Shown one piece after another: positions 3,001 to 52,500 of a stretch of 52,600 bases of DNA. Source of the stretch: a virus; the IMG/VR virus record IMGVR_UViG_3300017783_000031, positions 1 through 52,600 of that record, one strand, 5' to 3'. The translations under genes were made by a program, and so were the position numbers. Positions within the stretch are counted from its first letter, which is position 1. Each line of letters starts with the position of its first letter. Below the pieces are notes generated by a model. The model saw only the letters and a list, made by a program, of their open reading frames with translations. It made no database searches and was not told the origin of the DNA.

Positions 3001-6000
3001 CTTTAAAGCTGTAATATATCAAGGTAATGGTGGTAAACAAGGTGAAACTTATGGTTTTAAAGATGGTAGTAGAGCTGCGGTATTTAATGGCAGTAGTAGT
3101 AAAATAGATTTAGGAAATAATTCATCAAATAATTCATCTACTATAAGTGTTTCTTTATGGTTTAAAACAACAGGGCATAGTGGTACTGCTACTTTAATAA
3201 ATAATGGAGGATCAAATAGCAATGAAACAGGGTATTTTTTAGGATTAAATTCTAATGGAACTGTAAAATTCGAAGCAGGTGGGGGGACGGTCAATAGCTC
3301 AGTAAATTATGCAGATGATATTTGGCATCATATAGTTTTAACTTTAAATAGCGGAACATATAATATATATGTAGATGGAAATACAACACCCGTACTTACT
3401 GGAAGCGGTGCATTTACATCAACCGCTACTAGGCCAACTTGGATAGGCCAGTTTTCATATGCTTTATCAAATATAGAATTTTTTAATGGCTTAATAGATG
3501 ATGTAAGAATATATTCAGATGTGCTTACAACAACAGAAGTAGGTTATCTTTATAATGATGATACTACAAATATTGCTAATATTAGTAATCAAGTAGCGTA
3601 TTATGATATGGAGAGTGATTCTAATAATAATACATTACAAACTATTACAAGTGTTGCAACTTATCAGCTTAATAGCGATGGTGGCACAACAAACAACGTA
3701 CCTGACACCACAACAAACTACAACGGAACTGCTTCTAACATAACCTATGCTTCAGGGAAATTTGATAATGCTGCGGTATTAAATGGAAGTAGTAGCGTAA
3801 TAACATTGCCTAGTATCTCACAATTACCATCAAACAGTAATAATACTAATAATTTTACATTTAGTTGCTGGGTTAAATCTACCACTACAAGATTAAATAA
3901 CGGAGGAGGAAGCAATCCTATTTTTCAAAATAATGTTGGCTCTTACCAATTTATTGGGTTTGGTGGCAATGATAACGGAAATTTTCCCGCGGGAAGACTT
4001 TTTTATTATACATATGGAGGCTCCGGTCAACACAATAGTTGGATTATAACACCTAACACTTATGATAATGGCCAATGGCACCATCTTGTAGTTACAGATA
4101 AATATAACTCTGGAAGCGACAATAGAACAAGAACTATATATGTTGATGGAACACAAATAGTTCAAGATACAGTAGATAAAAACTTTTTAAACGGTACCGC
4201 AACCAATCATACATTAGGGGATGCAACAGGAACCGGGAACAGGCATGCGGGCATGGATCTTGACCAGGTAAGATTATTTAATGTACCGCTGGGGCAAGAG
4301 GGTGTGACAGCGTTGTATAACGAAACTACCACTTCAGCTCAGAGTGCTAGTATTCAAGGTTCACTTGATTATGATGGTGCTGACACTAACGTAACTTACA
4401 CTCAAGATAAACCTTATGGTAATATCAACGTTGGATTTGCTCCGGATTTTGTTTGGATAAAAAATAGAAATGGTAACAACTCACACATTTTGCAAGATTC
4501 TGTTAGAGGGTCAGGAAGTTCTAAAACACTCCATTCTGACTTGACTGCTTATGAGGGTCAATATGGCTCATACGGGAACATATCTTCTTTTGATGCAAAT
4601 GGTTTTTCCCCAAACGCAGGTTCAAATGGGGCTCACAACACAAATCTTTTAAATAATGTTTATGTAGCTTGGAACTGGAAAGCAGGCGGAACAGCAGTGT
4701 CAAACACAGATGGGGATATTACGGCAACAGTTAGTGCAAATCCTGATGCAGGGTTTAGTATTATAAAGTGGGATGCAACAACTACAGGAAGTGATAGATT
4801 AGGTCACGGTTTAGATAATAAGCCTGAACTTGTTATAATGAAAAATATAAGCAATTCAAATAGAAATTGGTTTGTATTTACAGATATAATTGACGGAAGT
4901 TATGACTATTTATATTTAAATTTAACAAACAATAAAGCCAATAGCACAAGAAATGTTCCTACTGCTGAGGTGTTTGACCAAGGTAACTTAGGAGGTGTTG
5001 TTGCAGGAGATGACTGTATCGCCTACTGCTTCCATTCAGTAGATGGTTTTTCCAAAATCGGCTCGTACACTGGAAATGGTTCATCTGATGGTCCATTTGT
5101 TCATACAGGATTTAAACCAGCTTGGGTTATGATAAAATCATATTCCAGTGGTAATGCAGGTGATTGGATGATAGTTGATAATGCAAGAGAAGTTAAAAAC
5201 ACTCTAGACTTAAGGTTAGATGCAAACTCATCAGATGATGAAGCTACGGATACTATAATGGATTTTTATTCTAATGGCTTTAAATTAAAAACTGCAAGTG
5301 CTGCTAAAAATAGAAATGGGTATGGGTTTCTCTACATGGCATTTGCTGAAGAACCAGTTAAATACTCTAACGGTGTAGCTACATTAGGTGATGGTAATGA
5401 ATTTATTCAAGATACTAATTACCCTGAAGATAATTTTAGTACTAATATATATACTGGTGATAGTGTTGATGGCCGACTTATAAAAACAGGATTTTCTCCT
5501 GATTTAACTTGGATAAAAGCAAGAAATCAGCCATTTTACCATTTTATATTCGATTCTTTAAGAATTGACCCTAATGATGACTATCATATAATGTCTAGTG
5601 ATGCTGGCGCGGAAGGAACTGTAGGGGAATCAAATCAAAGATTAAAAGAGTTTAGAAGCGATGGGTTTATTTTAGGTGGCGGCGGGCAACTTTCTAATAT
5701 TAATAAAGCCAGCAATAATTACGTTGCTTGGTCGTGGAAAGCTGCAGGCCATGAATATAAATCTGCCAGTTTTAATGGGAGTAATAGTAAAATAAATTTA
5801 TCAACTATTTCAAATATAAAAACTTATTCTTTTTGGATTAATCCTAATTCTAGCGGAAATCCTACTTATGCAAGGAGGATATTTGGTAATATAGGCGGAA
5901 CATCTTATACTTATTCTATTGTGCTAGACCCAGGATTTGGTGCCGCCGGGCAGGGTAGGATGGTTTATTACGAAAATACATCGGCAAGATACGGGGATAT

Positions 6001-7093
6001 AATTAATTTTGATGAATGGAGCCATATAGCTTTTACTTCGGATGGAACTACTTTAAAAGTATACACAAACGGAATTTTAAGCAATAGCTACACCACAAGT
6101 AGTTTTGTTAGTTCTATAAACGAAATATGTAGCACAACTTCAAATAGACAGTTTAAAGGGAAAATAGACCAAGTAAGAATATTTAACAAGCCAATTTTAC
6201 CCTCAGAAGGTGCAACATTATATAATGAAACAAAAAGCACCGTAGATACACTACAAGTTTTAGGGGATGCATCGTGTATAGCAACATATAGATTAAACGG
6301 AGATGCTTTAGATTTATCAGGTAACTATAATGGCACTGAAAGCAATATTGATTATGTAAAAGGCGGCCACTTTACTTATAACATTTACGAAAACAAAGCT
6401 AGAACATTTAGCCACAAAGCATCTGATCTAAATTTAAATACTCATCCTATTGTACCCGATGCTATTAGTGTCAATAGAGACAACGGTTTTAGTATTATAA
6501 AATGGAAAGGAAATGGTGTTGGTGAAAGTAATACAGAGGGTGCTTTAGTGTCGCATGGGCTAGGTAGTATTCCGGATATTGTAATTTTAAAAGATTTAGA
6601 TGCTAGTAGTGATTGGATGGTGCATTCGTATAATTTATGGACAGATCCAACTGATTATTATTTAAAATTAAACCAAAATATTTCAATAACAAACGGAACT
6701 GGATATCCATATAGAGTAACATCAACAGGATTTGCTAATGCATATAGAAATACACTTAATAATAATTATATAGCTTATGCTTGGCACTCTGTTCCTGGTT
6801 TTAGTAAAATAGGTTCTTTTACAGGAACGGGTTCAAGCGGTAATAAAATTTTAACAGGATTTGAACCAGAGTTTTTAATGATAAAAGGAACATCAATTAA
6901 TGGTAATTGGACAATTTTTGACAATCAAAGATCAAATGAAACTCTTTGGGCTAATTTAAATAATAGTTATGGTAGTGTTTCGACTACTAATAATTTTTCA
7001 TTTAATTCCGATGGATTCACAAGCCTTGGAGGTGGTAGTTCTACTAACAGTAATAATCACAATTATATATATATGGCCTTTGCACACAGATAA
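71..7093 (+). CDS. Giant LamG/SPRY/DUF7483-like adhesin, probable tail fibre or receptor-binding protein
   Basis: This 2340-residue protein is a mosaic of beta-sandwich modules. After a short N-terminal part there are about six concanavalin A/LamG-like units (roughly residues 85-260, 290-490, 530-750, 1000-1170, 1200-1430 and 1895-2050), recognisable by repeats such as FNGSNSKINL, WHHIVLT, IYVDGN and DDVRIY. An SPRY/B30.2-like unit lies near residues 800-950 (SGKWYVEF, WFISKNGSFL). Between and after these are three blocks like the phage DUF7483 family (VGFAPDFVWIKNR, YVAWNWKAGG, GFSIIKWDA, GFSKIGSYTGNG), and the protein ends YIYMAFAHR. LamG-like folds commonly bind carbohydrate, so a role in binding host surface glycans is inferred. 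It sits directly behind a fibre-like gene and ahead of terminase. Its N-terminus (MPIQNTGSDIRLRGNAGDSV) may anchor it to the virion. Repeated modules suggest growth by internal duplication. Confidence 0.8.
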   Translation: MPIQNTGSDIRLRGNAGDSVTDINEEINGNSTDTNVSLGTLNTTAFTNVSDGSVITGRAMSEMQGYSTFTSALPQTEATGALGESLLLDGSNYTFHRIPSLTSNRTTFTYSGWYKFNNLDSGNIIIMESGPTSGNGYISLRIDNTNNNIYGLVGNNPGNPWLVRSPELFFDTSSWFHFVFAVDTTKDFINDRLRVYVNGIEIKFTYTANTIAKNQTFFINDGSSRICVGRTARTDQYAQFGQTVVADAKFIDGTQLRPDSFGELIQGIWIPKAFNTPSTDQPVTRGLIADYQFNGNANDTSGTATTYNGTVSNTEFITNNYGSIKIAGSSDKVDFSGYSHSMFNNATVSVSTWVNAQALASPSQAGSHIFMGQGNWQIQITNSSTYGIYFTKYHGSSGGNNNTNWARYVPGGGVKTGVWYHIVVVDDTPNGNGIKLYVDGNLVAQNTAYTQVDSNNWVAGIANYPGRTGGNYVIGETKVFTSALTASEVLQEHNATKYKYAYGLNGFWLPLNNTSIGSIDSSSNLKLHLDASNNSSYGGSGTTWSDLTSNSNNGTISGANFLSTTNGGVFEFDGNNDSVQVNTLAGITNYNFTMSIWVNTTDTLAYYVSFRDPIYITFGSVYSSNSVGMGIYDGTNQYFINNTAMQSIDDGKWHHVVLTHNGTNLVGYIDGNIIATVSTGTTTHHSGGTNHNRIGMRGDGVSTTYDFNGKVAQFRIYNKALTAQEVITNYRATQGNYEQVSLVDISGNANSFTSTNIDYTDHIKDEPLDNYATLNPLEPYADQFSFSEGNTKFTSATTGYHTSSANMALTSGKWYVEFKYLGSSAYGSARIGPSILGDITGLNSYGGTTTNSWMWGSNGAIYNNNANIASSSVTATTGDIIGFAIDLNNYRWFISKNGSFLYSHDPATPSTGIDISGFTDYFIGFHAYTTTDIGKFYFGAEGFNYTPPTGFKALSTKNLPAPSINPDGATPDKPSNHFKAVIYQGNGGKQGETYGFKDGSRAAVFNGSSSKIDLGNNSSNNSSTISVSLWFKTTGHSGTATLINNGGSNSNETGYFLGLNSNGTVKFEAGGGTVNSSVNYADDIWHHIVLTLNSGTYNIYVDGNTTPVLTGSGAFTSTATRPTWIGQFSYALSNIEFFNGLIDDVRIYSDVLTTTEVGYLYNDDTTNIANISNQVAYYDMESDSNNNTLQTITSVATYQLNSDGGTTNNVPDTTTNYNGTASNITYASGKFDNAAVLNGSSSVITLPSISQLPSNSNNTNNFTFSCWVKSTTTRLNNGGGSNPIFQNNVGSYQFIGFGGNDNGNFPAGRLFYYTYGGSGQHNSWIITPNTYDNGQWHHLVVTDKYNSGSDNRTRTIYVDGTQIVQDTVDKNFLNGTATNHTLGDATGTGNRHAGMDLDQVRLFNVPLGQEGVTALYNETTTSAQSASIQGSLDYDGADTNVTYTQDKPYGNINVGFAPDFVWIKNRNGNNSHILQDSVRGSGSSKTLHSDLTAYEGQYGSYGNISSFDANGFSPNAGSNGAHNTNLLNNVYVAWNWKAGGTAVSNTDGDITATVSANPDAGFSIIKWDATTTGSDRLGHGLDNKPELVIMKNISNSNRNWFVFTDIIDGSYDYLYLNLTNNKANSTRNVPTAEVFDQGNLGGVVAGDDCIAYCFHSVDGFSKIGSYTGNGSSDGPFVHTGFKPAWVMIKSYSSGNAGDWMIVDNAREVKNTLDLRLDANSSDDEATDTIMDFYSNGFKLKTASAAKNRNGYGFLYMAFAEEPVKYSNGVATLGDGNEFIQDTNYPEDNFSTNIYTGDSVDGRLIKTGFSPDLTWIKARNQPFYHFIFDSLRIDPNDDYHIMSSDAGAEGTVGESNQRLKEFRSDGFILGGGGQLSNINKASNNYVAWSWKAAGHEYKSASFNGSNSKINLSTISNIKTYSFWINPNSSGNPTYARRIFGNIGGTSYTYSIVLDPGFGAAGQGRMVYYENTSARYGDIINFDEWSHIAFTSDGTTLKVYTNGILSNSYTTSSFVSSINEICSTTSNRQFKGKIDQVRIFNKPILPSEGATLYNETKSTVDTLQVLGDASCIATYRLNGDALDLSGNYNGTESNIDYVKGGHFTYNIYENKARTFSHKASDLNLNTHPIVPDAISVNRDNGFSIIKWKGNGVGESNTEGALVSHGLGSIPDIVILKDLDASSDWMVHSYNLWTDPTDYYLKLNQNISITNGTGYPYRVTSTGFANAYRNTLNNNYIAYAWHSVPGFSKIGSFTGTGSSGNKILTGFEPEFLMIKGTSINGNWTIFDNQRSNETLWANLNNSYGSVSTTNNFSFNSDGFTSLGGGSSTNSNNHNYIYMAFAHR

Positions 7094-44462: not shown

Positions 44463-45191
44463 TTATAAAGTTAAGTTAATAAAATAATTTTCTGGTTTAA
44501 AATTTTCTGTTTTATAAAACAATTCATAAACGTCAGTTGCTTTTTGAACTTTGTCTAATCCTGTTTGATAAAATTTATCAGACACATCAAATAAACCTAT
44601 TTGATGAGTATTTTTGTCTACAACAATAAACAAAAAGTTATATCCAAATAACTTACTATAAATATATGCCTGGCTATCATAATTATAACGTTTAGCACTA
44701 TATCTAAATGATTGAATATCATTTGTAGTTTTTAAATCAATGATTAATTTTTCATCATGATTTATAATATCCGCTTTGCCTTTCCATTTATTATTTTCTA
44801 TTTCAATAATACCTGGAACTTCATACTCAACATTACCTGTAATTAATTTATTTATAATTTCATTATTGAGCATTTTGTCTCGCATTACTTCTATTTGATC
44901 AACTTCATGTTGCAATAAACATAATTCGCCTCCCGATATTTCTTTATAAAGCTTTGTGTTACGGGTAGAGGCTTCTATAACTTTATATTTCTTTAGCTTA
45001 TCAGGCTCAAGTATACAAGTGTGAAAATATCCTCCTACTAAAAAAGCGGGCGAAGGTTTACTGGGTTTTTTAAAGTCGAGCGGATTTGAAAGTAATACGG
45101 AAATATCTGAATTGCTTAAAAATTGTTTACCAAAATCACCATAATAATGATTATCATTTCTTAGCTTTTCAATTATTTCATTTTGGTTCAT
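44463..45191 (-). CDS. PD-(D/E)XK exonuclease, RecE/DUF3799-like
   Basis: This 242-residue protein has the RecB/RecE-family nuclease core: His in GGYFHTCILEP (H57), Glu (E124), then KWKGKADIINHDEKLIIDLK, giving D141, D152 and K154. The sequence then continues YNYDSQAYIYSKLFG, the usual Q/Y motif after the core. Such exonucleases resect double-strand ends for a partner annealing protein. The gene overlaps the ERF-type annealing gene by 14 bases, a classic pair for phage recombination and repair. Confidence 0.82.
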   Translation of the reverse strand: MNQNEIIEKLRNDNHYYGDFGKQFLSNSDISVLLSNPLDFKKPSKPSPAFLVGGYFHTCILEPDKLKKYKVIEASTRNTKLYKEISGGELCLLQHEVDQIEVMRDKMLNNEIINKLITGNVEYEVPGIIEIENNKWKGKADIINHDEKLIIDLKTTNDIQSFRYSAKRYNYDSQAYIYSKLFGYNFLFIVVDKNTHQIGLFDVSDKFYQTGLDKVQKATDVYELFYKTENFKPENYFINLTL

Positions 45192-45720
45192 GTACTTTTA
45201 ATGTTAGCATGTCATCGCTTGACACATTATACTTACTTAATATTGCTTTTAATGCGCCACCAGATTCTACAAAACTAATTGCTTTTGTCCAATTTTCTGT
45301 GCCTTTAATTAACTTAGGTTTTGAAGAGGATTTATCATGCATATTAGTTGCATCTGAATCTGCTGTATCATCAATTAACAATAGATTTCCAAGTGCATAC
45401 TTTTTACCGTAAGAAGAAGCAGAACCAAATTGCTGAGGTACTTGCATTCCTTTTTGATTAAAGTCTACACCGACTAGAGCAGAAGCTGATATAAAGTTTG
45501 CACCATCTGCATCAAATACAGTTGCTGCCGACTCAATAACGCCGTCGCCTAGGTATTTCTCATTAACAGTAAAGTATACTTTATACTTTTTGTTAAATGG
45601 TTTAAGTGCTTCAAGGATGTCTTCGGCTGATCTGAAGTTGTATTTGCCGAACGAGTTAAAACGTGACTTTTTGGACTTAAACTCTTGTTGAATTAAACTT
45701 AATTTCTCATGAATAGTCAT
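45178..45720 (-). CDS. ERF-family single-strand annealing protein
   Basis: This 180-residue protein has the ERF core: YNFRSAEDILEALKPF, YKVYFTVNEKYLGDGVIESA, and VPQQFGSASSYGKKYALGNL with the conserved QxxGSAxSYxxKYAL motif, then LLLIDDTADSDAT. ERF proteins pair complementary strands after resection. A C-terminal part (SFVESGGALKAILSKY) may bind partners. It is coupled with the exonuclease gene downstream and follows the sigma factor gene after 29 bases. Confidence 0.88.
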   Translation of the reverse strand: MTIHEKLSLIQQEFKSKKSRFNSFGKYNFRSAEDILEALKPFNKKYKVYFTVNEKYLGDGVIESAATVFDADGANFISASALVGVDFNQKGMQVPQQFGSASSYGKKYALGNLLLIDDTADSDATNMHDKSSSKPKLIKGTENWTKAISFVESGGALKAILSKYNVSSDDMLTLKVHEPK

Positions 45721-45749
45721 AATATATTATTACGTATTAATGGTTAAAC

Positions 45750-46493
45750 TTAAAGAAAATCAATTACTTGAGCTGGGTTTACACTCTCGATTAACTTATT
45801 TATTGCATCCCTTTTTATTTGAGATATTCTTACATATGAAGCTGTGCCTTTTATCTGTAATTTATCAGCAATTGCTTTAGCTGACATTTTATCACAGTCT
45901 AAACCATAACTCATACGCAATACATCATATTCTTTTATACTTAAATGTGATTGCATTATAGATAATAAATACTTATTCATTATATCTATATTGTAATCTT
46001 TTGAATTATCTGGTATTTCAAAAAATGTATTATTATCTTTATCTGTTTCATCTAGCGAATAAAATATACTATTAAAAAACATTTCAACTGTTTTTTGTTC
46101 CGCCTCAGAATTTTTTCGCATATCATTTAACTTATGCTCAGGAATACGTATATTACCCCTGTTTATATCAATAGCTCTGCGTATAGCACCTTTAATTCTT
46201 TTACTTAAAAAACTATTAAGTGTGCGTTGGGGTTCAGTTGAATCAGTAATTTGATTCCAATCTATTTTATCAACCGCCGCTATTAATCCTATTGCTCCTT
46301 CTTGTATTAAATCATTTATAGTCATAACGCCTGACGCTTGTTGAGATGTAGAAAATTTTCTTGCTATTGTTTCAACCAAACCCATGTGAGATATAATTAA
46401 ATCTTGTCTACTATCTCCGGTATCGGGTATTTCGCTATAACTTGCAAGGTCATGTTTAAACCTAACGTAGTTTTGTATGTTATACTTCTTCAT
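45750..46493 (-). CDS. Phage RNA polymerase sigma factor (sigma-70 family)
   Basis: This 247-residue sigma factor has region 2 (about residues 30-118: IISHMGLVETIARKF, NDLIQEGAIGLIAAVDKID, TLNSFLSKRIKGAIRRAID) and region 4 (about 185-240: IKEYDVLRMSYGLD, then SAKAIADKLQIKGTASYVRI as the promoter helix-turn-helix). Region 1.1 is missing, as in alternative sigma factors. It should bind host core RNA polymerase and direct it to phage promoters, probably middle or late. Its gene overlaps the upstream HTH gene by 14 bases. Confidence 0.9.
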   Translation of the reverse strand: MKKYNIQNYVRFKHDLASYSEIPDTGDSRQDLIISHMGLVETIARKFSTSQQASGVMTINDLIQEGAIGLIAAVDKIDWNQITDSTEPQRTLNSFLSKRIKGAIRRAIDINRGNIRIPEHKLNDMRKNSEAEQKTVEMFFNSIFYSLDETDKDNNTFFEIPDNSKDYNIDIMNKYLLSIMQSHLSIKEYDVLRMSYGLDCDKMSAKAIADKLQIKGTASYVRISQIKRDAINKLIESVNPAQVIDFL

Positions 46494-47097
46494 TCAATAG
46501 CATCTTTTCTTGCTTAATCTCTAAAGTTATATTTCTGTATATAGTTCTTGTTGACACGTTTAATAAATTAGCTATTTTAGAAATAGTAATTTTTTTATTA
46601 TTATCATGTATGCCAAGCATTGCTTCATATATATCTCCTGCCTCTGCTTTTTTCTTTCTACCTATAATACTGCCAACTATTTTTAGTTTTTCAGTAGATG
46701 TGAGACCAGAATATTCTTTAAATATAATTTTACGCATTTTATTTTTTGGAGGGGCTTCTAAATCTTTTTCAAAAACCTCGTCAACTAAATTAATTATACT
46801 TGATTCATTTAGTTTTATAACTACAAACCCATTATCCTTATCAGCAAGATAGCGCGTTAATTCTAAAATATCGTCATATGTTAATTTTTTATTTAAATAC
46901 CATAATACAAGTAAGTGCCATTTAAATGATTTATAAGATGTTATTTTTGCTTTAGATCTAAATAATTCATAACATTCGTATGTACCATTTTCATAAAAGT
47001 TACCCCAACTAAAAATTTCAGAAGGGGTATCAGTAATAGGTCCGCGTCGATATACGATACGTCTTCGATGTAAATACTCGAGATTTTTATGTGACAT
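46480..47097 (-). CDS. Putative DNA-binding regulator with C-terminal HTH
   Basis: The 205-residue protein has an N-terminal region of unknown fold (FSWGNFYENGTYECYELFRS) and a C-terminal helix-turn-helix (KKITISKIANLLNVSTRTIY) typical of transcription regulators. Its direct, overlapping place ahead of the sigma factor gene suggests a role in phage transcription timing. I do not recognise the N-terminal part. Confidence 0.65.
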   Translation of the reverse strand: MSHKNLEYLHRRRIVYRRGPITDTPSEIFSWGNFYENGTYECYELFRSKAKITSYKSFKWHLLVLWYLNKKLTYDDILELTRYLADKDNGFVVIKLNESSIINLVDEVFEKDLEAPPKNKMRKIIFKEYSGLTSTEKLKIVGSIIGRKKKAEAGDIYEAMLGIHDNNKKITISKIANLLNVSTRTIYRNITLEIKQEKMLLNEEV

Positions 47098-47138
47098 TAG
47101 CCTGCTACTATTATTTAATTAATTTGCTATCGTCATGC

Positions 47139-47348
47139 TTATAGCAATACTAGTCTTAAATGTTTTCTATATTGTTTCATTCTTGAACCAATAGCCTGCA
47201 TTTCTTTTACTTTTTTATTTAATTCTTTCCCTTTTAATTCTGAAATTTCTAAAGAATTTTTAGATAATTTATTATGCAGATAAAATAGATGATTTGATAC
47301 GGCTGATATGTGTTTACTTTTTCTACTTTTTAGCTTTTCTAAAATCAT
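47139..47348 (-). CDS. Small basic helical protein
   Basis: This 69-residue protein is Lys/Leu/Ser-rich with heptad-like helices (MILEKLKSRKSKHISAVSNH; KKVKEMQAIGSRMKQYRKHL). It has 41 and 40 bases of non-coding DNA on either side. No family is recognised; the charge fits nucleic-acid binding. Confidence 0.55.
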   Translation of the reverse strand: MILEKLKSRKSKHISAVSNHLFYLHNKLSKNSLEISELKGKELNKKVKEMQAIGSRMKQYRKHLRLVLL

Positions 47349-47388
47349 TTGTTTTTGTTTTATGGTTTTTAAAAAAAAATATAAATAA

Positions 47389-47541
47389 TTAAAATATTTT
47401 TATAATATCTATTACTGCTTCGGGGCTAAAGTACTTTAATATACCATTTATTGCAGCTTCCTGTACGTGTAAATCTACTTCGGTATTAATTAAAAACTCT
47501 TCTCTACCCCATCTTGGGCAATTAATTATAAGTGTACTCAT
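47389..47541 (-). CDS. Mini-protein of unknown function
   Basis: The 50-residue frame reads MSTLIINCPRWGREEFLINT, EVDLHVQEAAINGILKYFSP, EAVIDIIKIF. Its ATG shares one base with the stop codon of the upstream gene (TAATG), and it fills a gap that would otherwise be about 190 bases. No family is recognised. Confidence 0.6.
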   Translation of the reverse strand: MSTLIINCPRWGREEFLINTEVDLHVQEAAINGILKYFSPEAVIDIIKIF

Positions 47542-47837
47542 TATAATTTGTTAATTTTAAGTCTTAATATTCTTATTTTATTTTTAATTATTTCGGCTTT
47601 TTCATAATCTTCATTATCTACATATGTTTCAAGTAAATTTTCAAGTTTATGTAGTTCCCACCCATAATATTCAATTTCTGATACTTGAGTACTATTACCA
47701 AATTCATCAGATACCATAAACGTTTGAGTATTATTTTCATAAGACTCTTGGTGGGTAACTAATTTTTTGAATAATAATTCAGCTATTTTTTCAATTTCTT
47801 GTTCTGATAGTGCCATAGAAGTTATTATATTACTCAT
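47541..47837 (-). CDS. Small protein with UVR-like C-terminal motif
   Basis: This 98-residue protein ends in LETYVDNEDYEKAEIIKNKI, close to the UvrB/UvrC interaction motif (E.FE.A..lRd.I) also found in the clamp-like adaptors of stress proteins. The N-terminal part is acidic and helical (MALSEQEIEKIAELLFKKL). It may bind a host protein such as a UVR-motif partner. The first ATG at 47837 is used; an ATG seven codons later (MALSEQ) is also possible. Confidence 0.6.
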   Translation of the reverse strand: MSNIITSMALSEQEIEKIAELLFKKLVTHQESYENNTQTFMVSDEFGNSTQVSEIEYYGWELHKLENLLETYVDNEDYEKAEIIKNKIRILRLKINKL

Positions 47838-47842
47838 TTTTA

Positions 47843-48037
47843 TTATTTATTTAATATATTTTTTATGTTAGTTTTATTAGAAACTATGGTTTCGGCGGCA
47901 TCAATAATGTTGTGTATAGCAATACCTTCAGGCATATCTATTTGCATATCAGCTATATTCCCAATTTGATAATCATGAATAAAATTCCATAAATTATATT
48001 GTAAATCATCTAAATTATTTTTTGTAAGCATATTCAT
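47843..48037 (-). CDS. Small acidic protein of unknown function
   Basis: This 64-residue protein (MNMLTKNNLDDLQYNLWNFI, then HNIIDAAETIVSNKTNIKNI) is helical and acidic. It begins 23 bases inside the KTSC gene in another frame. No family is recognised. Confidence 0.55.
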   Translation of the reverse strand: MNMLTKNNLDDLQYNLWNFIHDYQIGNIADMQIDMPEGIAIHNIIDAAETIVSNKTNIKNILNK

Positions 48038-48248
48038 ATTTATTAGCTTTTATAATATGTTTATTAATAAACTTACCAATTGACTCAGAATATTTCATAG
48101 ATAAAAAAGTATTGGTTGGTACACCAATATAACTATATTTTTTACCATCATTAAATTTTAAATCTAATATTTCATTTTCATAGTCATACTCGGCTTTACT
48201 AATAGCCATAGAGTTTACATGCACTGTTTCTTTGTTTACTTTAATCAT
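48015..48248 (-). CDS. KTSC-domain protein
   Basis: This 77-residue protein has the KTSC pattern: a motif with VNSMAISKAEYDYENEILDL, KFNDGKKYSYIGVPTNTF and MKYSESIGKFINKHI. KTSC is a small beta-strand domain often found alone in phages or fused to lysyl-tRNA synthetase-like and RNA-related proteins; RNA binding has been suggested. It overlaps the DnaA-like gene by eight bases. Confidence 0.8.
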   Translation of the reverse strand: MIKVNKETVHVNSMAISKAEYDYENEILDLKFNDGKKYSYIGVPTNTFLSMKYSESIGKFINKHIIKANKYEYAYKK

Positions 48249-48648
48249 TTGTTAATTTATTTAATTGTTCTTCTAATATTTCAACACGCTTTAAAATGCG
48301 TTCAAACGTCATATCAAATTCTTGAATGCGCCCAGGTGGTATATATTTTTTATCTAATTTAGTAGATATTTTATCATATATATCATTCATATATGGATCG
48401 TATTTGGCTTCAGTATCATATTTTTTTAAACCATTTATAACTGTAGCGTGATCGCGATTTACTTGTTTACCTATAGCTGATAAGCTTGCATATCTACAAA
48501 ACTTACGGGCTAATTTAAAATATATAAATCTTGCCTGTGCTAATTCTCTTGTTCTTGTTTTTGAACTTAAATTATTTATACTAAGTTCATATTGTACTAA
48601 ATCAAATATTTCTTTAGTTTTAACTATTCGTTTGTTTTTAATATCCAT
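48241..48648 (-). CDS. DnaA domain IV-like DNA-binding protein
   Basis: This 135-residue protein contains ARFIYFKLARKFCRYASLSA followed by IGKQVNRDHATVINGLKKY. This is the DnaA C-terminal helix-turn-helix with its signature (R65-D66-H67-A68-T69-V70) that reads the DnaA box. The AAA+ domain is absent. Behind it comes a charged coiled coil (FERILKRVEILEEQLNKL). The protein could mark a phage origin, compete with host DnaA, or act as a regulator. Its ATG lies inside promoter-like site F, so its true start or expression mode is not certain. Confidence 0.8.
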   Translation of the reverse strand: MDIKNKRIVKTKEIFDLVQYELSINNLSSKTRTRELAQARFIYFKLARKFCRYASLSAIGKQVNRDHATVINGLKKYDTEAKYDPYMNDIYDKISTKLDKKYIPPGRIQEFDMTFERILKRVEILEEQLNKLTND

Positions 48649-48671
48649 ATGTATTCGTGTTTATCTTGTAA
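48640..48671 (-). promoter_or_regulatory. Promoter-like site F (weaker match)
   Basis: On the - strand TTACAA (48671-48666), then GATAAA, CACG, nine bases and GGATATT (48646-48640). Box order and spacing equal the five better sites at the right end, with one mismatch in the last box. The ATG of the DnaA-like gene (48648-48646) overlaps the last box, so transcription starting here would be leaderless or would need a later start. Confidence 0.5.
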
Positions 48672-48864
48672 TTGTCCATAATTTATTGTGTACAAATTTT
48701 GTTTTATATGTGCGTTTGCCAGATATAATAACATCTTGATGTTTCATATACTCTTTAAAAGTAAATGGTTTACAATCGCCATGCTGTTTTTTTTCTTTAG
48801 CCCAGCGTATTGCATTTTGCTTTCTTTTGTTTTTTACGTATTCTTTAAGTTCTTGTATACTCAT
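48661..48864 (-). CDS. Small basic protein of unknown function
   Basis: This 67-residue protein is rich in Lys and Trp (IRWAKEKKQHGDCKPFTFKE; RTYKTKFVHNKLWTITR). It overlaps the upstream gene by four bases (ATGA-type) and its end overlaps promoter-like site F. No family is recognised. Confidence 0.6.
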   Translation of the reverse strand: MSIQELKEYVKNKRKQNAIRWAKEKKQHGDCKPFTFKEYMKHQDVIISGKRTYKTKFVHNKLWTITR

Positions 48865-49118
48865 TGTGATAATTGTTTTGCTTTATAAGTTGCATATGGT
48901 TCAGATGGAACAAATCCATCATAAGCTTTTTCAATTAGTTCAGCCATACGTAACCATACCTTTAGTGTCCTAACGTCGCCTGTTATAATATTATAAGATA
49001 ACTCTGGCCAAGCAACGTTATGTCTATTTTTAAACTTTGTACGTATGTTTAACCTATGAGTTGTTATTTTAGCTATTAACATAGCTTCAATTCTGTCGTT
49101 AATTTCTTTTGTTGTCAT
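48861..49118 (-). CDS. Small helical protein of unknown function
   Basis: This 85-residue protein (NDRIEAMLIAKITTHRLNIR; GDVRTLKVWLRMAELIEKAY) is basic and helical. It lies directly downstream of the structured RNA region and would be on the same transcript unless the RNA is cut out. No family is recognised. Confidence 0.6.
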   Translation of the reverse strand: MTTKEINDRIEAMLIAKITTHRLNIRTKFKNRHNVAWPELSYNIITGDVRTLKVWLRMAELIEKAYDGFVPSEPYATYKAKQLSQ

Positions 49119-49137
49119 AGTGTTTAATTTAATTTAG

Positions 49138-49213
49138 TGGACGTGGGAGGAGTTGAACCTCCGTTTGTTGATAGTGTACTTTTGAACTTTGTCAACACTT
49201 ACCCGTCACGCCC
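49138..49213 (-). ncRNA. tRNA-like element, D-arm-less, 76 bases
   Basis: The 5' GGGCGTG (49213-49207) pairs over seven positions with 3' CACGTCC (49145-49139), including one G-T pair, and is followed by a discriminator A (49138). A perfect T-arm is present: GGAGG, loop TTCAACT, CCTCC. Between them there is no normal D-arm: nine bases (ACGGGTAAG) lead into a six-pair stem TGTTGA/TCAACA with a 20-base loop instead of a 7-base anticodon loop. Position 8 is A rather than T, and CTA follows instead of CCA. This is like the tRNA domain of tmRNA in shape. It may be a processing signal, a decoy substrate or a decayed tRNA. Confidence 0.6.
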
Positions 49214-49354
49214 GTAGCCGAAGGCACAGCACATTACCTGTCTTTTTAACTAGTATATATTGCTCGTCAGCATTCCTTCGGTGCCGTTAATAATGTAAAG
49301 ACCTCACCGCCGGTTTTATTTACCCCTGCAGAGGTACGACGGTTTTTTGGTCTT
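49138..49354 (-). ncRNA. Structured non-coding region with a tRNA-like 3' end
   Basis: About 265 bases without a good gene lie between 49,119 and 49,384, and they fold strongly. Read on the - strand, the first domain is a long hairpin: GGTCTT (49354-49349) with AAGACC (49303-49298), inside it CCGTCG with CGGCGG (49342-49337 and 49312-49307), then CCTC with GGGG around TGCA. The second domain pairs CCGAAGG with CCTTCGG (49281-49275 with 49224-49218). The third is the tRNA-like element described separately. The base content is less A/T-rich than its surroundings. I know no named RNA family with this exact layout; tmRNA, degenerate tRNA or a new phage RNA are possible. The boundaries are my estimate. 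Confidence 0.6.
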
Positions 49355-49384
49355 ACAACAAACACACACTGTTTGAAAAAAAGT

Positions 49385-49543
49385 TTATAGTTGTTGATTA
49401 AGTATATAATTAATTACTTGTTTTGGTGTGCCTGTCATTGAATGCGTTGCGCCGTCTTTATTTTTAAAAATTAATTCATAAAAATGTGGTTGGTGTATAG
49501 CAAATGGTGTGTCATATTTATTTCCTGCCATATTATTCGTCAT
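49385..49543 (-). CDS. Small protein of unknown function
   Basis: This protein has 52 residues from the ATG at 49543 (MTNNMAGNKYDTPFAIHQPH, then FYELIFKNKDGATHSMTGTP). The start gives an 11-base overlap ATGACGAATAA with the upstream gene, the same junction as seen one gene earlier. A second ATG at 49531 follows the upstream stop by one base and is also possible. The body has a small beta-hairpin character. It is the last mini-gene before the structured RNA. Confidence 0.55.
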   Translation of the reverse strand: MTNNMAGNKYDTPFAIHQPHFYELIFKNKDGATHSMTGTPKQVINYILNQQL

Positions 49544-49706
49544 TAGGATTATAGTTATCTTCTTCAGGATATTCAAATTTATCTCTTGTTCGATTACCCC
49601 AAATAGGTTTTTCATATTTATATCCTAGTATAGGATTAATACCATGGTTCCACCAGTCATCAGGCATTTCTTTTGTTTCAATATATTTGTTATTTTTATT
49701 CGTCAT
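49533..49706 (-). CDS. Small aromatic, acidic protein of unknown function
   Basis: The 57-residue protein starts at 49706 (MTNKNNKYIETKEMPDDWWN) and ends EYPEEDNYNPNDE. The start is chosen by the 11-base overlap with the upstream gene, identical in sequence to the following junction. No family is recognised. Confidence 0.55.
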   Translation of the reverse strand: MTNKNNKYIETKEMPDDWWNHGINPILGYKYEKPIWGNRTRDKFEYPEEDNYNPNDE

Positions 49707-50028
49707 TTTCGTTGTCTTTATGTTCTTCAATATAATCTTGTACTTCATACTCTGGTAAGTATGTGTCTACGTCAGCTATATGTATAATAGCTTCATCAGG
49801 CTCATTATCTCCACATTCTTTGATTCTTTCAATAATATCATCAAAAGATGGTTCGTAATAGTATACGTCATTTTCCCAGTCGAGATGTTGTGCATCATTT
49901 GTTACAACGTGAATATCATAGCCATCAGCTGTGTTCCACGTACCTATTTCTAAAGCTGGACTACCTTTCCAATCTTCAGTAATTTCTGCTACATTTAGTA
50001 GCTTTGCTAGTTGTTCAATATGTGTCAT
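49696..50028 (-). CDS. Acidic protein of unknown function
   Basis: The 110-residue protein is strongly acidic (YYYEPSFDDIIERIKECGDN; EYEVQDYIEEHKDNENDE) with an N-terminal helical stretch (MTHIEQLAKLLNVAEITEDW). Highly acidic early phage proteins often mimic DNA or bind host enzymes, so an anti-host role is possible but not shown. Its start overlaps the upstream stop (ATGA). Confidence 0.6.
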   Translation of the reverse strand: MTHIEQLAKLLNVAEITEDWKGSPALEIGTWNTADGYDIHVVTNDAQHLDWENDVYYYEPSFDDIIERIKECGDNEPDEAIIHIADVDTYLPEYEVQDYIEEHKDNENDE

Positions 50029-50402: not shown

Positions 50403-50639
50403 TTATTGGTTGTTTGTTGTTATAATTTCTTTTTCATCTTCAAGCTTATCAATACATTCAGATAGCTTTACAGTTATATAATTTTGAATGTCTTCTGTTT
50501 CAAACCCGTCAGCCCATAAGATAGGTACAATTTTTTCAAGGCAATAGCGTACATCCCAGTCGCCTCCTAATAGTTTTTCAATTCGCGTTACAGTTTGACG
50601 CATTTGAATGTAGTTATTTAGTTGTGTGTTTGTGTTCAT
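50403..50639 (-). CDS. Small acidic helical protein
   Basis: The 78-residue protein (YIQMRQTVTRIEKLLGGDWD; ILWADGFETEDIQNYITVKL) is helical and ends in an acidic stretch. Its ATG follows promoter-like site A by about 30 bases, with a leader that is repeated exactly in front of the gene at 50790. It is the first gene of that transcript. No family is recognised. Confidence 0.6.
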   Translation of the reverse strand: MNTNTQLNNYIQMRQTVTRIEKLLGGDWDVRYCLEKIVPILWADGFETEDIQNYITVKLSECIDKLEDEKEIITTNNQ

Positions 50640-50669: not shown

Positions 50670-50701
50670 ATTATCCGGTTATTAACGTGTTTGCTTTGTA
50701 A
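50670..50701 (-). promoter_or_regulatory. Phage early promoter-like site A
   Basis: On the - strand: TTACAA (50701-50696), AGCAAA, CACG, nine bases, GGATAAT (50676-50670). It lies in the 3' end of a mini-gene and about 30 bases ahead of the ATG at 50639. Box order and the 19-base spacing are identical in sites B, C and D. Confidence 0.7.
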
Positions 50702-50790
50702 TTTGCGTATAGCAAAATGGTTATGATAAATGGTATAGCTATTGCAATACCTTTAAAAAATTCGTTGGGGTCTATTGGTATGTGGTTCAT
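50671..50790 (-). CDS. Tiny membrane protein
   Basis: The 39-residue frame (MNHIPIDPNEFFKGIAIAIP, then FIITILLYANYKANTLITG) has one hydrophobic segment, about residues 14-29. It starts after the exact leader repeat, and its stop codon lies in promoter site A. The strong leader makes it likely to be translated. Confidence 0.6.
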   Translation of the reverse strand: MNHIPIDPNEFFKGIAIAIPFIITILLYANYKANTLITG

Positions 50791-50812
50791 AATATTTAAT
50801 TTTAATTGTTAT
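50785..50812 (-). repeat. Exact 28-base leader repeat, copy 2
   Basis: This is identical to 50634-50661. It precedes a different gene, so the leader itself, not the coding part, has been copied or conserved. Confidence 0.8.
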
Positions 50813-50982
50813 CCTATATATTCTAATAATTTTTTAATCTTCTTTAAATTTTTGTGTGCGATCTGTGCATTCATAAAGTATGCATAGTCTGGTCCAATCT
50901 CAACTAGATCATCTATTGTTTGACGTAGTTGGTATAATTTGTCTTTTACTATTATTGTTTTGTTATGTGTGTTAGTATCCAT
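50809..50982 (-). CDS. Small helical protein of unknown function
   Basis: The 57-residue protein is taken from the ATG at 50982 (MDTNTHNKTIIVKDKLYQLR, then QTIDDLVEIGPDYAYFMNAQ), which overlaps the upstream stop by 11 bases. An ATG nine codons earlier lies deep in the upstream gene. The C-terminus is basic (IAHKNLKKIKKLLEYIG). Unknown function. Confidence 0.6.
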   Translation of the reverse strand: MDTNTHNKTIIVKDKLYQLRQTIDDLVEIGPDYAYFMNAQIAHKNLKKIKKLLEYIG

Positions 50983-51160
50983 ATTTAGTATAATGTTTAA
51001 TTGTTTCAATTGACGCTTTGTTGAATTGGTGTACTCGCTCTCTGTATTTGGCGTCAGTACAATATTTTTTCATTGCTCTGGATTCTGTACATTCACCCCA
51101 GCGACGTTCGAAGTCATTGACTTGTTTTAGTTTTGCTTTTAGTTGTGCTTCTGTTTTCAT
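50972..51160 (-). CDS. Small basic protein of unknown function
   Basis: The 62-residue protein (MKTEAQLKAKLKQVNDFERR, then WGECTESRAMKKYCTDAKYR) is basic and helical and has two Cys. The ATGA overlap with the upstream gene supports the start. Unknown function. Confidence 0.6.
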   Translation of the reverse strand: MKTEAQLKAKLKQVNDFERRWGECTESRAMKKYCTDAKYRERVHQFNKASIETIKHYTKYGY

Positions 51161-51264
51161 AATCCTAAGTGCATTTCAATTTCCCAGTTTTCCATTTCAG
51201 TTATTTGTTCTTCAGTGTAGCTTGTATTAGCAAGCATTTCTTCTAAGTAGTATTGATTCATCAT
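51157..51264 (-). CDS. Tiny acidic protein
   Basis: The 35-residue frame (MMNQYYLEEMLANTSYTEEQ, then ITEMENWEIEMHLGL) is acidic and helical. It is held between neighbours by a two-base... gap of one base on one side (stop 51266) and an ATGA overlap on the other, which supports coding. Unknown function. Confidence 0.5.
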   Translation of the reverse strand: MMNQYYLEEMLANTSYTEEQITEMENWEIEMHLGL

Positions 51265-51265
51265 A

Positions 51266-51406
51266 TTAGTTGTGTATTAAGTATTGTTTTGTTTCGTCAT
51301 AGCTCAGTGGCCAATCATAGTATTTATATATTCTGTTAATCTTTTCTTCTGTTGGTAGGTCAAGTGTGTTAACCCAGTCCATTAAATTTGTGTGTGATGT
51401 GTTCAT
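51266..51406 (-). CDS. Mini-protein of unknown function
   Basis: The 46-residue frame reads MNTSHTNLMDWVNTLDLPTE, EKINRIYKYYDWPLSYDETK, QYLIHN. Its ATG overlaps the upstream TGA by four bases (ATGA). No family is recognised. Confidence 0.55.
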   Translation of the reverse strand: MNTSHTNLMDWVNTLDLPTEEKINRIYKYYDWPLSYDETKQYLIHN

Positions 51407-51576
51407 ATTATATAATCTTTTTTAATTTGTTTTATTAGTTCAAAGCGTCTGTCAAGAAGTTGTTGGTGTATAGCAAGTAGCTTTTCTTGTTGGTCGAGTG
51501 ATAATCCTAGGCCTTGTATTTTTAGATCTTGTATCATGTCTAGTTTGCCATTTATTTCGTGTAGTCGTGTTTTCAT
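51403..51576 (-). CDS. Small coiled-coil protein
   Basis: The 57-residue frame (MKTRLHEINGKLDMIQDLKI, then QGLGLSLDQQEKLLAIHQQL) is a charged helix pair. ATGA overlaps are present on both sides. Unknown function. Confidence 0.58.
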   Translation of the reverse strand: MKTRLHEINGKLDMIQDLKIQGLGLSLDQQEKLLAIHQQLLDRRFELIKQIKKDYII

Positions 51577-51737
51577 AGTTTACTAAATTTTTTGATTAAA
51601 TCTAATTCTGTTTTAAACATTTCTTGTTGTGTTATGTTGAGGTCATGTAGCCTGTCAACATCAGTTTGTGTTTTTATATAGTCAACTAGGTTGAAGTAAA
51701 GCTTATCTATTTGTTGTTTTGTTAATTCTATTTTCAT
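51573..51737 (-). CDS. Small helical protein downstream of promoter site D
   Basis: The 54-residue protein is taken from the ATG at 51737 (MKIELTKQQIDKLYFNLVDY, then IKTQTDVDRLHDLNITQQEM). An in-frame ATG at 51767 exists but lies in the GGATAAT box of promoter site D, so it would be upstream of or at the transcript start; the later ATG is preferred. Unknown function. Confidence 0.58.
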   Translation of the reverse strand: MKIELTKQQIDKLYFNLVDYIKTQTDVDRLHDLNITQQEMFKTELDLIKKFSKL

Positions 51738-51758
51738 TTGTGTTTGTTTTACGTTTAT

Positions 51759-51790
51759 ATTATCCATTTAAGATAGTATTAAGCTTGTAA
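51759..51790 (-). promoter_or_regulatory. Phage early promoter-like site D
   Basis: On the - strand: TTACAA (51790-51785), GCTTAA, TACT, nine bases, GGATAAT (51765-51759). It matches the other sites in box order and exact 19-base spacing and overlaps the stop codon of the upstream mini-gene. A transcript starting about seven bases after the last box would give a short leader to the ATG at 51737. Confidence 0.7.
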
Positions 51791-51955
51791 CTTTGTGTGA
51801 GCATAGTAGACTTTAGTTGTGTTGATATGGTTCCAGTGAGCATTTCTTGCAAAGGTTATTCGTGTTGGACCTTTAGAACCAAGGCCATAGAAGCCCATTT
51901 GTCTTTCAGTTTGCTTTGCTTGTCTTGCTAATTTCTTTTGTAATTGAGTAGTCAT
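51779..51955 (-). CDS. Small basic protein of unknown function
   Basis: The 58-residue frame (MTTQLQKKLARQAKQTERQM, then GFYGLGSKGPTRITFARNAH) is very basic with a central Gly-rich motif (GFYGLGSKGP) that suggests nucleic-acid binding. It ends in promoter site D. No family is recognised. Confidence 0.58.
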   Translation of the reverse strand: MTTQLQKKLARQAKQTERQMGFYGLGSKGPTRITFARNAHWNHINTTKVYYAHTKLQA

Positions 51956-51995
51956 AAGGTATGTGTTTTGTTTGTTAGTATAATTTTAGATGGTG

Positions 51996-52154
51996 TTATT
52001 GTGCTTTGTCTGTGTCTGTTACAAATACTTTTTTGTTTTCAAATATGTCAATCATTTGATAGATCTCGTGTCTTATGTGTTCCCAGTCATCAGAGTTTGC
52101 ACAATCTTCTAAACAATGCTTGATGAGGTTGGTATGTCTTGGTGTTAGTTTCAT
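51996..52154 (-). CDS. Small acidic protein downstream of promoter site C
   Basis: The 52-residue frame (MKLTPRHTNLIKHCLEDCAN, then SDDWEHIRHEIYQMIDIFEN) is helical with two Cys. Its ATG lies 10 bases after the GGATAAT box of site C, so its transcript would be almost leaderless. Unknown function. Confidence 0.58.
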   Translation of the reverse strand: MKLTPRHTNLIKHCLEDCANSDDWEHIRHEIYQMIDIFENKKVFVTDTDKAQ

Positions 52155-52164
52155 ATTCTTATAT

Positions 52165-52196
52165 ATTATCCAGTTGAGGTCGTATTTAGTTTGTAA
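52165..52196 (-). promoter_or_regulatory. Phage early promoter-like site C
   Basis: On the - strand: TTACAA (52196-52191), ACTAAA, TACG, nine bases, GGATAAT (52171-52165). The spacing is identical to sites A, B and D. It begins one base after the stop codon of the mini-gene at 52197-52364. Confidence 0.72.
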
Positions 52197-52364
52197 TTAA
52201 CATTCTTCAATTTTAATTATATTATCTAATGAATATCTATTTGCCCATTCTTTTGTAGCAATGTCTATGCTTTCACATTTCATATATTTATTAGAAATTC
52301 TTTTATTCTTTTCTCCTTTAGCATTTACATAAGTAATGTTAATTGTAGCTTTATACATTTTCAT
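52197..52364 (-). CDS. First mini-gene of the leftward early module
   Basis: The 55-residue frame (MKMYKATINITYVNAKGEKN, then KRISNKYMKCESIDIATKEW) looks like a small beta-rich domain with a helix. It follows promoter site B with a leader of about 25 bases, so it should be the first protein made by the leftward early operon. No family is recognised; early first genes often act on the host. Confidence 0.6.
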   Translation of the reverse strand: MKMYKATINITYVNAKGEKNKRISNKYMKCESIDIATKEWANRYSLDNIIKIEEC

Positions 52365-52390
52365 AATTAGTATTTATTTGTTACATATAT

Positions 52391-52422
52391 ATTATCCAAA
52401 ATAGATCGTGCTAGCTTTGTAA
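52391..52422 (-). promoter_or_regulatory. Phage early promoter-like site B
   Basis: On the - strand: TTACAA (52422-52417), AGCTAG, CACG, nine bases, GGATAAT (52397-52391). It has the same spacing as A, C and D, and the sequence around TTACAA (GCAAATTACAAAGC) is identical to site A. It reads toward the mini-gene starting at 52364. Confidence 0.75.
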
Positions 52423-52427
52423 TTTGC

Positions 52428-52446
52428 TATACATTAAAAATGTATA
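52428..52446. promoter_or_regulatory. Perfect palindrome beside promoter site B, possible operator
   Basis: TATACATT and AATGTATA are exact inverted repeats separated by AAA. The palindrome lies five bases upstream of the TTACAA box of site B, between sites E and B. A dimeric regulator could bind there to control B, or it could form a short RNA hairpin in the E transcript. No T-run follows, so a terminator is less likely. Confidence 0.55.
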
Positions 52447-52468
52447 ATTGGGGTTGGGGCCTAACTAG

Positions 52469-52500
52469 ATTATCCGAAATAGTCCGTGTTTTGCACGTAA
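52469..52500 (-). promoter_or_regulatory. Phage early promoter-like site E
   Basis: On the - strand: TTACGT (52500-52495), GCAAAA, CACG, nine bases, GGATAAT (52475-52469). The first box matches four of six positions, while the YACG and GGATAAT boxes and spacing are exact. It stands about 78 bases upstream of site B, so the two would form tandem promoters. Confidence 0.6.

What the first reader, a model, noticed from the sequence alone, without database searches (positions are those of the whole stretch)
50670..52500. Tripartite promoter-like motif with invariant spacing in six copies
On the - strand, sites A, B, C and D read TTACAA, six bases, YAC(G/T), nine bases, GGATAAT, with exactly 19 bases between the outer boxes in every case. 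Site E differs only in the first box, and a sixth, slightly weaker site F lies at 48640-48671. Where it can be judged, each site is followed after 10-40 bases by the start of an early gene. The -10-like box resembles TATAAT rather than the Bacteroidota TAnnTTTG, and the middle YACG box is not part of any promoter class I know. Either a modified host polymerase, the phage sigma factor (45750-46493) or another activator may read it.
Basis: partly seen in the sequence, partly recalled or inferred. Interest (0 to 1): 0.78.

Follow-up and report, generated by a model that had tools for sequence, protein, structure and literature searches.

The report
Phage sigma factor's own promoter motif
A family of uncultured marine viruses of (probably) Bacteroidota bacteria carries a start-of-transcription signal that its likely hosts do not use, and the viruses encode a sigma factor of their own that most likely directs the host's RNA polymerase to it.

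Summary
Six sites (4 exact, F with 1 and E with 2 mismatches) lie on one strand with the stated 19-base spacing, all in the ~3% of the window outside my ORF calls. Relatives carry hundreds more: 950 unique sites give the logo WTACAAACTAAAYACGA-N7-TGGATAATA-N5-R. The R fits +1: 132 of 910 sites place a start codon exactly there, putting GATAAT at -12..-7, TTACAA at -38..-33 and YACGA at -26..-22. So these are promoters with a sigma70-type -10, plus an unusual conserved box in the spacer.

The most likely reader is the phage's own sigma factor (45750-46493) on host core polymerase. All 22 motif-bearing relatives of at least 60 kb encode it; five named relatives without it lack the motif. The motif has one hit, apparently chance, in 84,980 prokaryote genomes. 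Among 149 sigma loci, 677 sites point the same way as sigma and 2 the other way. Relatives with diverged sigma (42-46%) carry altered motifs in the same register, although their virion genes can be nearly identical to the window's. Host-type TAnnTTTG promoters are not enriched upstream of genes.

Temporal class and the source of the first sigma remain unknown.

The parts
52469..52500 (-). Promoter E: TTACGTGCAAAACACGGACTATTTCGGATAAT; predicted +1 about 52462; upstream member of tandem pair E/D
   Evidence: 2 mismatches; equivalent pair ~78 bases apart in G015, G004, G005, G006, G002
52391..52422 (-). Promoter D: exact match; predicted +1 52384, leader 20 nt to ATG at 52364
52165..52196 (-). 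Promoter C: exact match; predicted +1 52158, leader 4 nt to ATG at 52154
51759..51790 (-). Promoter B: exact match (YACT variant of the middle box); predicted +1 51752; gene most likely starts at ATG 51737, not at 51767
50670..50701 (-). Promoter A: exact match; predicted +1 50663, leader 24 nt to ATG at 50639
48640..48671 (-). Promoter F: GGATATT variant, overlaps the first ATG (48648) of the DnaA-like ORF; predicted +1 48633; conserved in G015, G004, G005
45750..46493 (-). Phage sigma factor (247 aa), sigma70 family with regions 2 and 4: proposed reader of the promoters
   Evidence: PHROG 351 E 2.5e-22; Pfam Sigma70_r2 4e-5 and Sigma70_r4 0.002, both just below the curated cut-offs; PDB matches SigA, FliA, SigB, RpoD; Foldseek best matches all sigma factors, prob 1.00
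46480..47097 (-). HTH protein (205 aa) directly upstream of sigma; not needed for the promoter motif; proposed to bind the inverted repeat
   Evidence: present in 142/150 sigma loci; absent in loci that keep the motif
47092..47135 (.). Inverted repeat TGACATTAGC...GCTATCGTCA overlapping the HTH start codon: probable operator of the HTH-sigma gene pair
   Evidence: in 123/134 loci with HTH, 0/11 without, 0 in 2.46 Mb of shuffled sequence

Best explanation
The six sites are promoters for the host's multisubunit RNA polymerase carrying the phage's own sigma factor (window 45750-46493). Shown by sequence: a directional three-element motif with fixed register (TTACAA at -38..-33, YACGA at -26..-22, GATAAT at -12..-7, purine at +1), placed just upstream of the genes of the small-gene and replication arm, and restricted to phages that encode this sigma. 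Inferred: sigma region 2 reads and melts GATAAT; region 4 reads the outer TTACAA box; the middle YACGA box is read by the holoenzyme too (it lies in the spacer, where from general knowledge no sigma70 region is known to make base contacts) or shapes the spacer. It is dispensable, since several lineages have lost it. The HTH protein encoded just upstream of sigma probably binds a separate inverted repeat over its own start codon, and so controls how much sigma is made.
For: Promoter geometry: logo of 439 unique sites with R at position 38 (99%) and Y before it (84%). Of 910 sites with a downstream start codon, 132 have the ATG exactly at that +1, against 3 one base further and none seen one base before. 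Direction: 677 sites co-oriented with sigma, 2 opposite, in 149 loci. Co-occurrence: every motif-bearing record of at least 60 kb has sigma (22 of 22; in two of them the sigma reading frame is broken); five named relatives without sigma have no site. Lineage restriction: the refined pattern gives 1 hit in 84,980 prokaryote genomes, at the start of a SAR11 gene and probably chance. Of the 50 records tested, nearly all fetched for carrying the motif, 47 have the TerL homologue and the other 3 are ~40 kb fragments. Covariation: diverged sigma goes with altered motif in the same register: class 3 ATACGA..CACT + TGATAAT with sigma 42-44%; class 4 AAACGA-N9-TATAAT with sigma 46%. Class 3 sigmas form one clade, 100/100. 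Discordance control: G009 shares 95% capsid and 82% TerL identity with the window but 44% sigma, and has a class 3 motif; G012 has 51% capsid and 53% sigma, and has the window's motif. No host-type promoters: TAnnTTTG within 60 bases upstream of genes 0-5 per genome, against 14-17 in Panino, elemoF and MW202828. The protein is a sigma70-family factor.
Against: No binding, transcript or infection data. The same-register class 2 motif (middle box lost) occurs with sigmas 52-58% identical to the window's that mix with class 1 in the tree, so one sigma clade tolerates two motif forms. A sigma residue (107, A to R) that looked linked to loss of the middle box did not survive correction for kinship. 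In the class 3 genomes the replication genes diverged together with sigma, so sigma is not uniquely singled out by that comparison. If new sigma is needed for these promoters, something else must start infection, and no such promoter was found.
Confidence: 0.85

Rival explanations
1. The host's own RNA polymerase with a host sigma reads the motif as true early promoters, and the phage sigma serves only late genes.
For: The sites sit in the arm that looks early; something must transcribe the first genes; in phages phiEco32 and 7-11 the early promoters are host sigma70-dependent and the phage sigma serves middle or late genes (PMC8948821).
Against: Motif virtually absent from 84,980 prokaryote genomes; only 2 of the 6 near-invariant positions of the Flavobacterium -7 element match (PMC6847099); the motif changes when phage sigma changes although virion genes stay close; no matrix hits in sigma-less relatives.
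Confidence: 0.08
2. The HTH protein encoded next to sigma (46480-47097) binds the outer or middle box and recruits polymerase, like an activator.
For: HTH gene directly upstream of sigma in 142/150 loci; a box inside the spacer is hard to assign to a known sigma region.
Against: Loci L456-L459, L442, L450 and L453 have several class 1 sites, and L422 one, but no detectable HTH gene; the HTH gene instead goes strictly with another sequence, an inverted repeat (123/134 against 0/11).
Confidence: 0.04
3. A virion-carried RNA polymerase of the phage reads the motif, as in N4, P23-45 or crAss-like phages.
For: Two giant proteins (2584 and 2066 aa) lie in the structural arm; early genes would then need no host sigma.
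Against: No polymerase domain or DxDGD catalytic motif found in the window's proteins of 150 aa or more (the 2584-aa protein has a crAss muzzle-like domain and PHROG virion structural hits); the motif has a sigma70-type -10.
Confidence: 0.02
4. The motif is not a promoter but an RNA leader element or a replication or packaging site that happens to precede genes.
For: Strict direction and short distance to start codons would also fit a leader element.
Against: Start codons fall exactly at the predicted +1 in 132 sites, so the motif would lie outside those mRNAs; purine at +1 after a pyrimidine; -10 geometry; 3 to 22 copies with turnover between genomes.
Confidence: 0.01

Closest known systems
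phiEco32 gp36 and phage 7-11 gp47 (phage sigma factors that redirect host core polymerase; PMC8948821)
   Same: Phage-encoded sigma factor with its own promoter set in a podovirus; related phages whose sigmas diverge have different promoter consensus sequences; starts 6-9 bases from the element.
   Different: Their consensus is one element (tAATGTAtA) or two (GTAAtg-16-aCTA) and serves middle or late genes; here three elements, in the small-gene/replication arm, in phages whose relatives infect Bacteroidota. Neither phage was among the 11 records similar to this sigma.
Bacteroidota housekeeping promoter TTTG / TAnnTTTG (PMC6847099)
   Same: Two-box promoter with A-11; short leaders with A-rich start regions.
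   Different: The -10 here is GATAAT, not TAnnTTTG; the outer box is TTACAA at -38; an extra spacer box; host-type promoters are not enriched upstream of genes in sigma-bearing phages.
T4 middle promoters (MotA box plus -10; from general knowledge)
   Same: Extra sequence box upstream of a TATAAT-like -10 at fixed distance.
   Different: No MotA-like protein needed: the only co-encoded HTH candidate is dispensable. MotA homology itself was not tested.
Elemovirus, Pervagoviridae (phi38:1), Pachyviridae (phi18:3), Maribacter phage Panino
   Same: Same virion gene set (TerL 36-46%, portal 27-47% identity).
   Different: No sigma homologue and no such motif; Panino and elemoF show host-type promoters instead.

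Membership tests
sigma70-family sigma factor | Region 2 (core binding, -10 recognition) | tested here: met
   Pfam Sigma70_r2 E 4e-5, 23.7 bits against cut-off 24; phmmer to SigA/RpoD/FliA residues 15-132; PHROG 351 E 2.5e-22
sigma70-family sigma factor | Region 4 (-35 recognition HTH) | tested here: inconclusive
   Sigma70_r4 E 0.002, 18 bits, below cut-off 24.1; second phmmer stretch 171-234 to SigA; helices there in the model
sigma70-family sigma factor | Overall sigma fold | tested here: met
   AlphaFold2 model pLDDT 74, pTM 0.46; top Foldseek PDB matches all sigma factors, E 4e-6 to 4e-5, prob 1.00, but TM-scores only ~0.3 because the domain arrangement is uncertain
Bacteroidota housekeeping promoters | -7 element TAnnTTTG | tested here: not met
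   Consensus GATAATA; TAnnTTTG not upstream of genes
Promoters of a phage-encoded sigma factor | Occurs only with the sigma gene | tested here: met
   22/22 motif-bearing records of at least 60 kb have sigma; 5 sigma-less relatives have none
Promoters of a phage-encoded sigma factor | Transcription in vitro by phage sigma plus host core | not testable with these tools
   No experiment available
phiEco32 / 7-11 type phage sigma | Sequence homology of the sigma factor | tested here: not met
   tblastn at E 1e-3 against 50,697 phage records returns 11 records (10 Synechococcus phages, 1 unnamed), 24-25% identity; phiEco32 and 7-11 not among them
N4/crAss-type virion polymerase promoters | Phage polymerase encoded | tested here: not met
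   No polymerase family hit or DxDGD motif in the window

The most novel reading that the evidence does not exclude
These phages have abandoned host-type promoters altogether: a sigma factor carried into the cell with the virion captures host core polymerase from the first minute, and reads a three-element promoter whose middle element lies in the -26..-22 spacer, where no sigma70-family factor is known to make base contacts. Sigma and promoter then evolve by losing, swapping or moving elements within a fixed register (classes 1-4).
Probability: 0.2. Interest if true: 0.85.

Novelty: new variant of a known kind. Interest (0 to 1): 0.62.

Why it matters
Sigma factors encoded by phages are known, but none was found described for Bacteroidota phages in the literature searched here. 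This one comes with about 950 unique predicted promoters and about 150 sigma sequences, a large natural data set for how a sigma factor and its promoter evolve together, including changes within an unchanged register. The spacer box is an unusual feature that a structure could explain. Practically, it gives a way to annotate promoters and transcription starts in a large group of uncultured marine phages, and a candidate orthogonal promoter/sigma pair for Bacteroidota, whose host promoter rules differ from those of E. coli. The apparent lack of host-type promoters poses a concrete question: what starts transcription in these infections.

Tried and rejected
HTH neighbour as reader of the outer or middle box: rejected, several loci with class 1 sites lack it. 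A sigma residue (107, A to R) as determinant of the middle box: looked strong (13/16 against 9/79) but failed phylogenetic correction (4 independent pairs); not claimed. E. coli T440-equivalent Arg reading G-12: the class 4 sigma has the same Arg with T-12; not claimed. Virion RNA polymerase: no evidence. Host-type promoter for the sigma operon: none conserved; scattered TAnnTTTG mostly inside coding sequence. Late promoter by EM: dominated by coding bias; reading gaps by eye gave only an AT-rich candidate. tRNA genes in the window: none. Literature searches for a published motif or a flavophage sigma gave nothing.

Full report
WHAT IS THERE. The six sites are real: four exact, F with one and E with two mismatches, all on the - strand, all with 19 bases between outer boxes; shuffled sequence never gave more than 4 matches at this tolerance. 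They occupy the ~3% of the window outside called ORFs. The window is a 52.6 kb virus record from a podovirus group whose nearest named relatives are MW202828, Elemovirus, Maribacter phage Panino, phi38:1 and phi18:3. Those with a named host infect Flavobacteriia, so a Bacteroidota host is inferred, not shown. Relatives are 60-70 kb, so part of the genome is missing.

HOW GENERAL. In 40 records, most of which were fetched because they carry the pattern, 36 have it, nearly always on one strand, against single matches to the reversed control pattern. Of 50 records tested for the terminase, 47 have the homologue and the rest are ~40 kb fragments. A refined pattern has one hit in 84,980 prokaryote genomes, at the start of a SAR11 gene.

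ANATOMY. A logo of 439 unique sites reads WTACAAACTAAAYACGA, seven loose bases, TGGATAATA, five AT-rich bases, R. Position 38 is a purine in 99% and is preceded by a pyrimidine in 84%, the signature of a start site. Of 910 sites with a downstream start codon, 132 have the ATG exactly at that base and most others 11-40 bases later. This fixes +1 without transcript data: GATAAT spans -12..-7 as in sigma70 promoters, TTACAA -38..-33, YACGA -26..-22. Gene starts that coincide with +1 imply leaderless mRNAs. De novo EM on early-strand upstream regions recovers the same motif at 28 bits.

WHO READS IT. The Flavobacterium -7 element has T-12 A-11 T-8 T-7 T-6 G-5 (PMC6847099); only A-11 and T-7 fit. 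Host-type TAnnTTTG elements lie within 60 bases upstream of genes 0-5 times per sigma-bearing genome but 14-17 times in Panino, elemoF and MW202828, and those few are mostly coding coincidences. The window encodes a 247-aa sigma70-family factor. All 22 motif-bearing records of at least 60 kb have it (two with broken reading frames, G017 and G032); the motif-bearing records without it are fragments under 60 kb; five named relatives without it have no site. In 149 sigma loci, 677 sites point with sigma and 2 against.

COVARIATION. Sigma loci without the standard motif but with enough upstream sequence mostly carry recognisable variants in the same register (L318 showed none). Class 2 keeps TTACAA and GGATAAT but has lost YACGA. 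Class 3 has ATACGA..CACT at the outer position and TGATAAT. Class 4 keeps ACGA-N9 and has TATAAT but no TTACAA. Classes 3 and 4 go with the most diverged sigmas (42-46%); class 3 sigmas are one clade (100/100). Class 2 arises in several places among class 1 sigmas, so loss of the middle box is repeated and does not require a new sigma lineage. The best control is discordance: G009 has 95% identical capsid and 82% identical terminase but 44% sigma and a class 3 motif, while G012 has 51% capsid, 53% sigma and the window's motif. The motif follows sigma (or the replication-side module), not virion genes.

A SECOND ELEMENT. Its presence tracks an inverted repeat TGACAWTAGC-N~20-GCTAWTGTCA just upstream of, or over, its own start codon: 123/134 loci with HTH, 0/11 without, none in 2.46 Mb of shuffled sequence. 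In the window it is 47092-47135. Many relatives have a second copy in the divergent region, about 165-225 bases upstream of promoter E. The HTH protein therefore probably regulates the HTH-sigma gene pair.

WHAT IS NOT KNOWN. Temporal class is inferred from gene order only. If the promoters need freshly made sigma, they are middle promoters and an unseen promoter or virion-carried sigma must come first. What contacts YACGA is unknown. A residue-level link between sigma and the middle box failed phylogenetic correction. No experiment was possible.

VERDICT. Observation confirmed, interpretation supported and narrowed: promoters of a phage-encoded sigma factor. It works like the phiEco32 and 7-11 systems (PMC8948821) but is not detectably homologous to them, and it has a three-element architecture for which I know no match.

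Noticed in passing
window 47092-47135; loci L304-L511: Inverted repeat TGACAWTAGC-N~20-GCTAWTGTCA over the HTH start codon, strictly associated with the HTH gene (123/134 against 0/11); second copy in the divergent early/late region of many relatives. Probable operator.
   Followed up: yes
window 49135-49213 (- strand): Partial tmRNA-like match (RF00023, E 2.8e-9, 31.1 bits, below gathering score) spanning the whole model; Panino is annotated with a tmRNA too.
   Followed up: no
window 13051 and 15865 (+), orthologues in relatives: AT-rich conserved sequences TTAATTTTATAATATTATATCATG and TTTTATTATATTATATCATG directly before late gene starts: candidate late promoter or start-region element.
   Followed up: partly
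class 1 sites in many relatives, window site D: ATGTAA at -2..+4 in 216 of 950 sites: an ATG followed at once by a stop codon across the predicted start site; most likely just the initiation sequence (G at +1).
   Followed up: partly
G018: 3695-4444 and 64909-65658 (+): Two different sigma paralogues, both near the ends of one 66 kb contig with class 1 promoters.
   Followed up: no
L205 (MW202828) 45179-49907: The nearest named relative, which lacks sigma, has a perfect palindrome GTGTCGTTAACGACAC upstream of at least five genes of its + strand arm: a different regulatory solution.
   Followed up: no
G014 ends (786-6500 and 64550-70398): The two ends of the 70.7 kb contig repeat the same early region with small differences; assembly of two strains or long terminal redundancy.
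   Followed up: no
G017, G032, L511: Sigma (and in G032 terminase) reading frames broken by many indels, which look like assembly errors.
   Followed up: no
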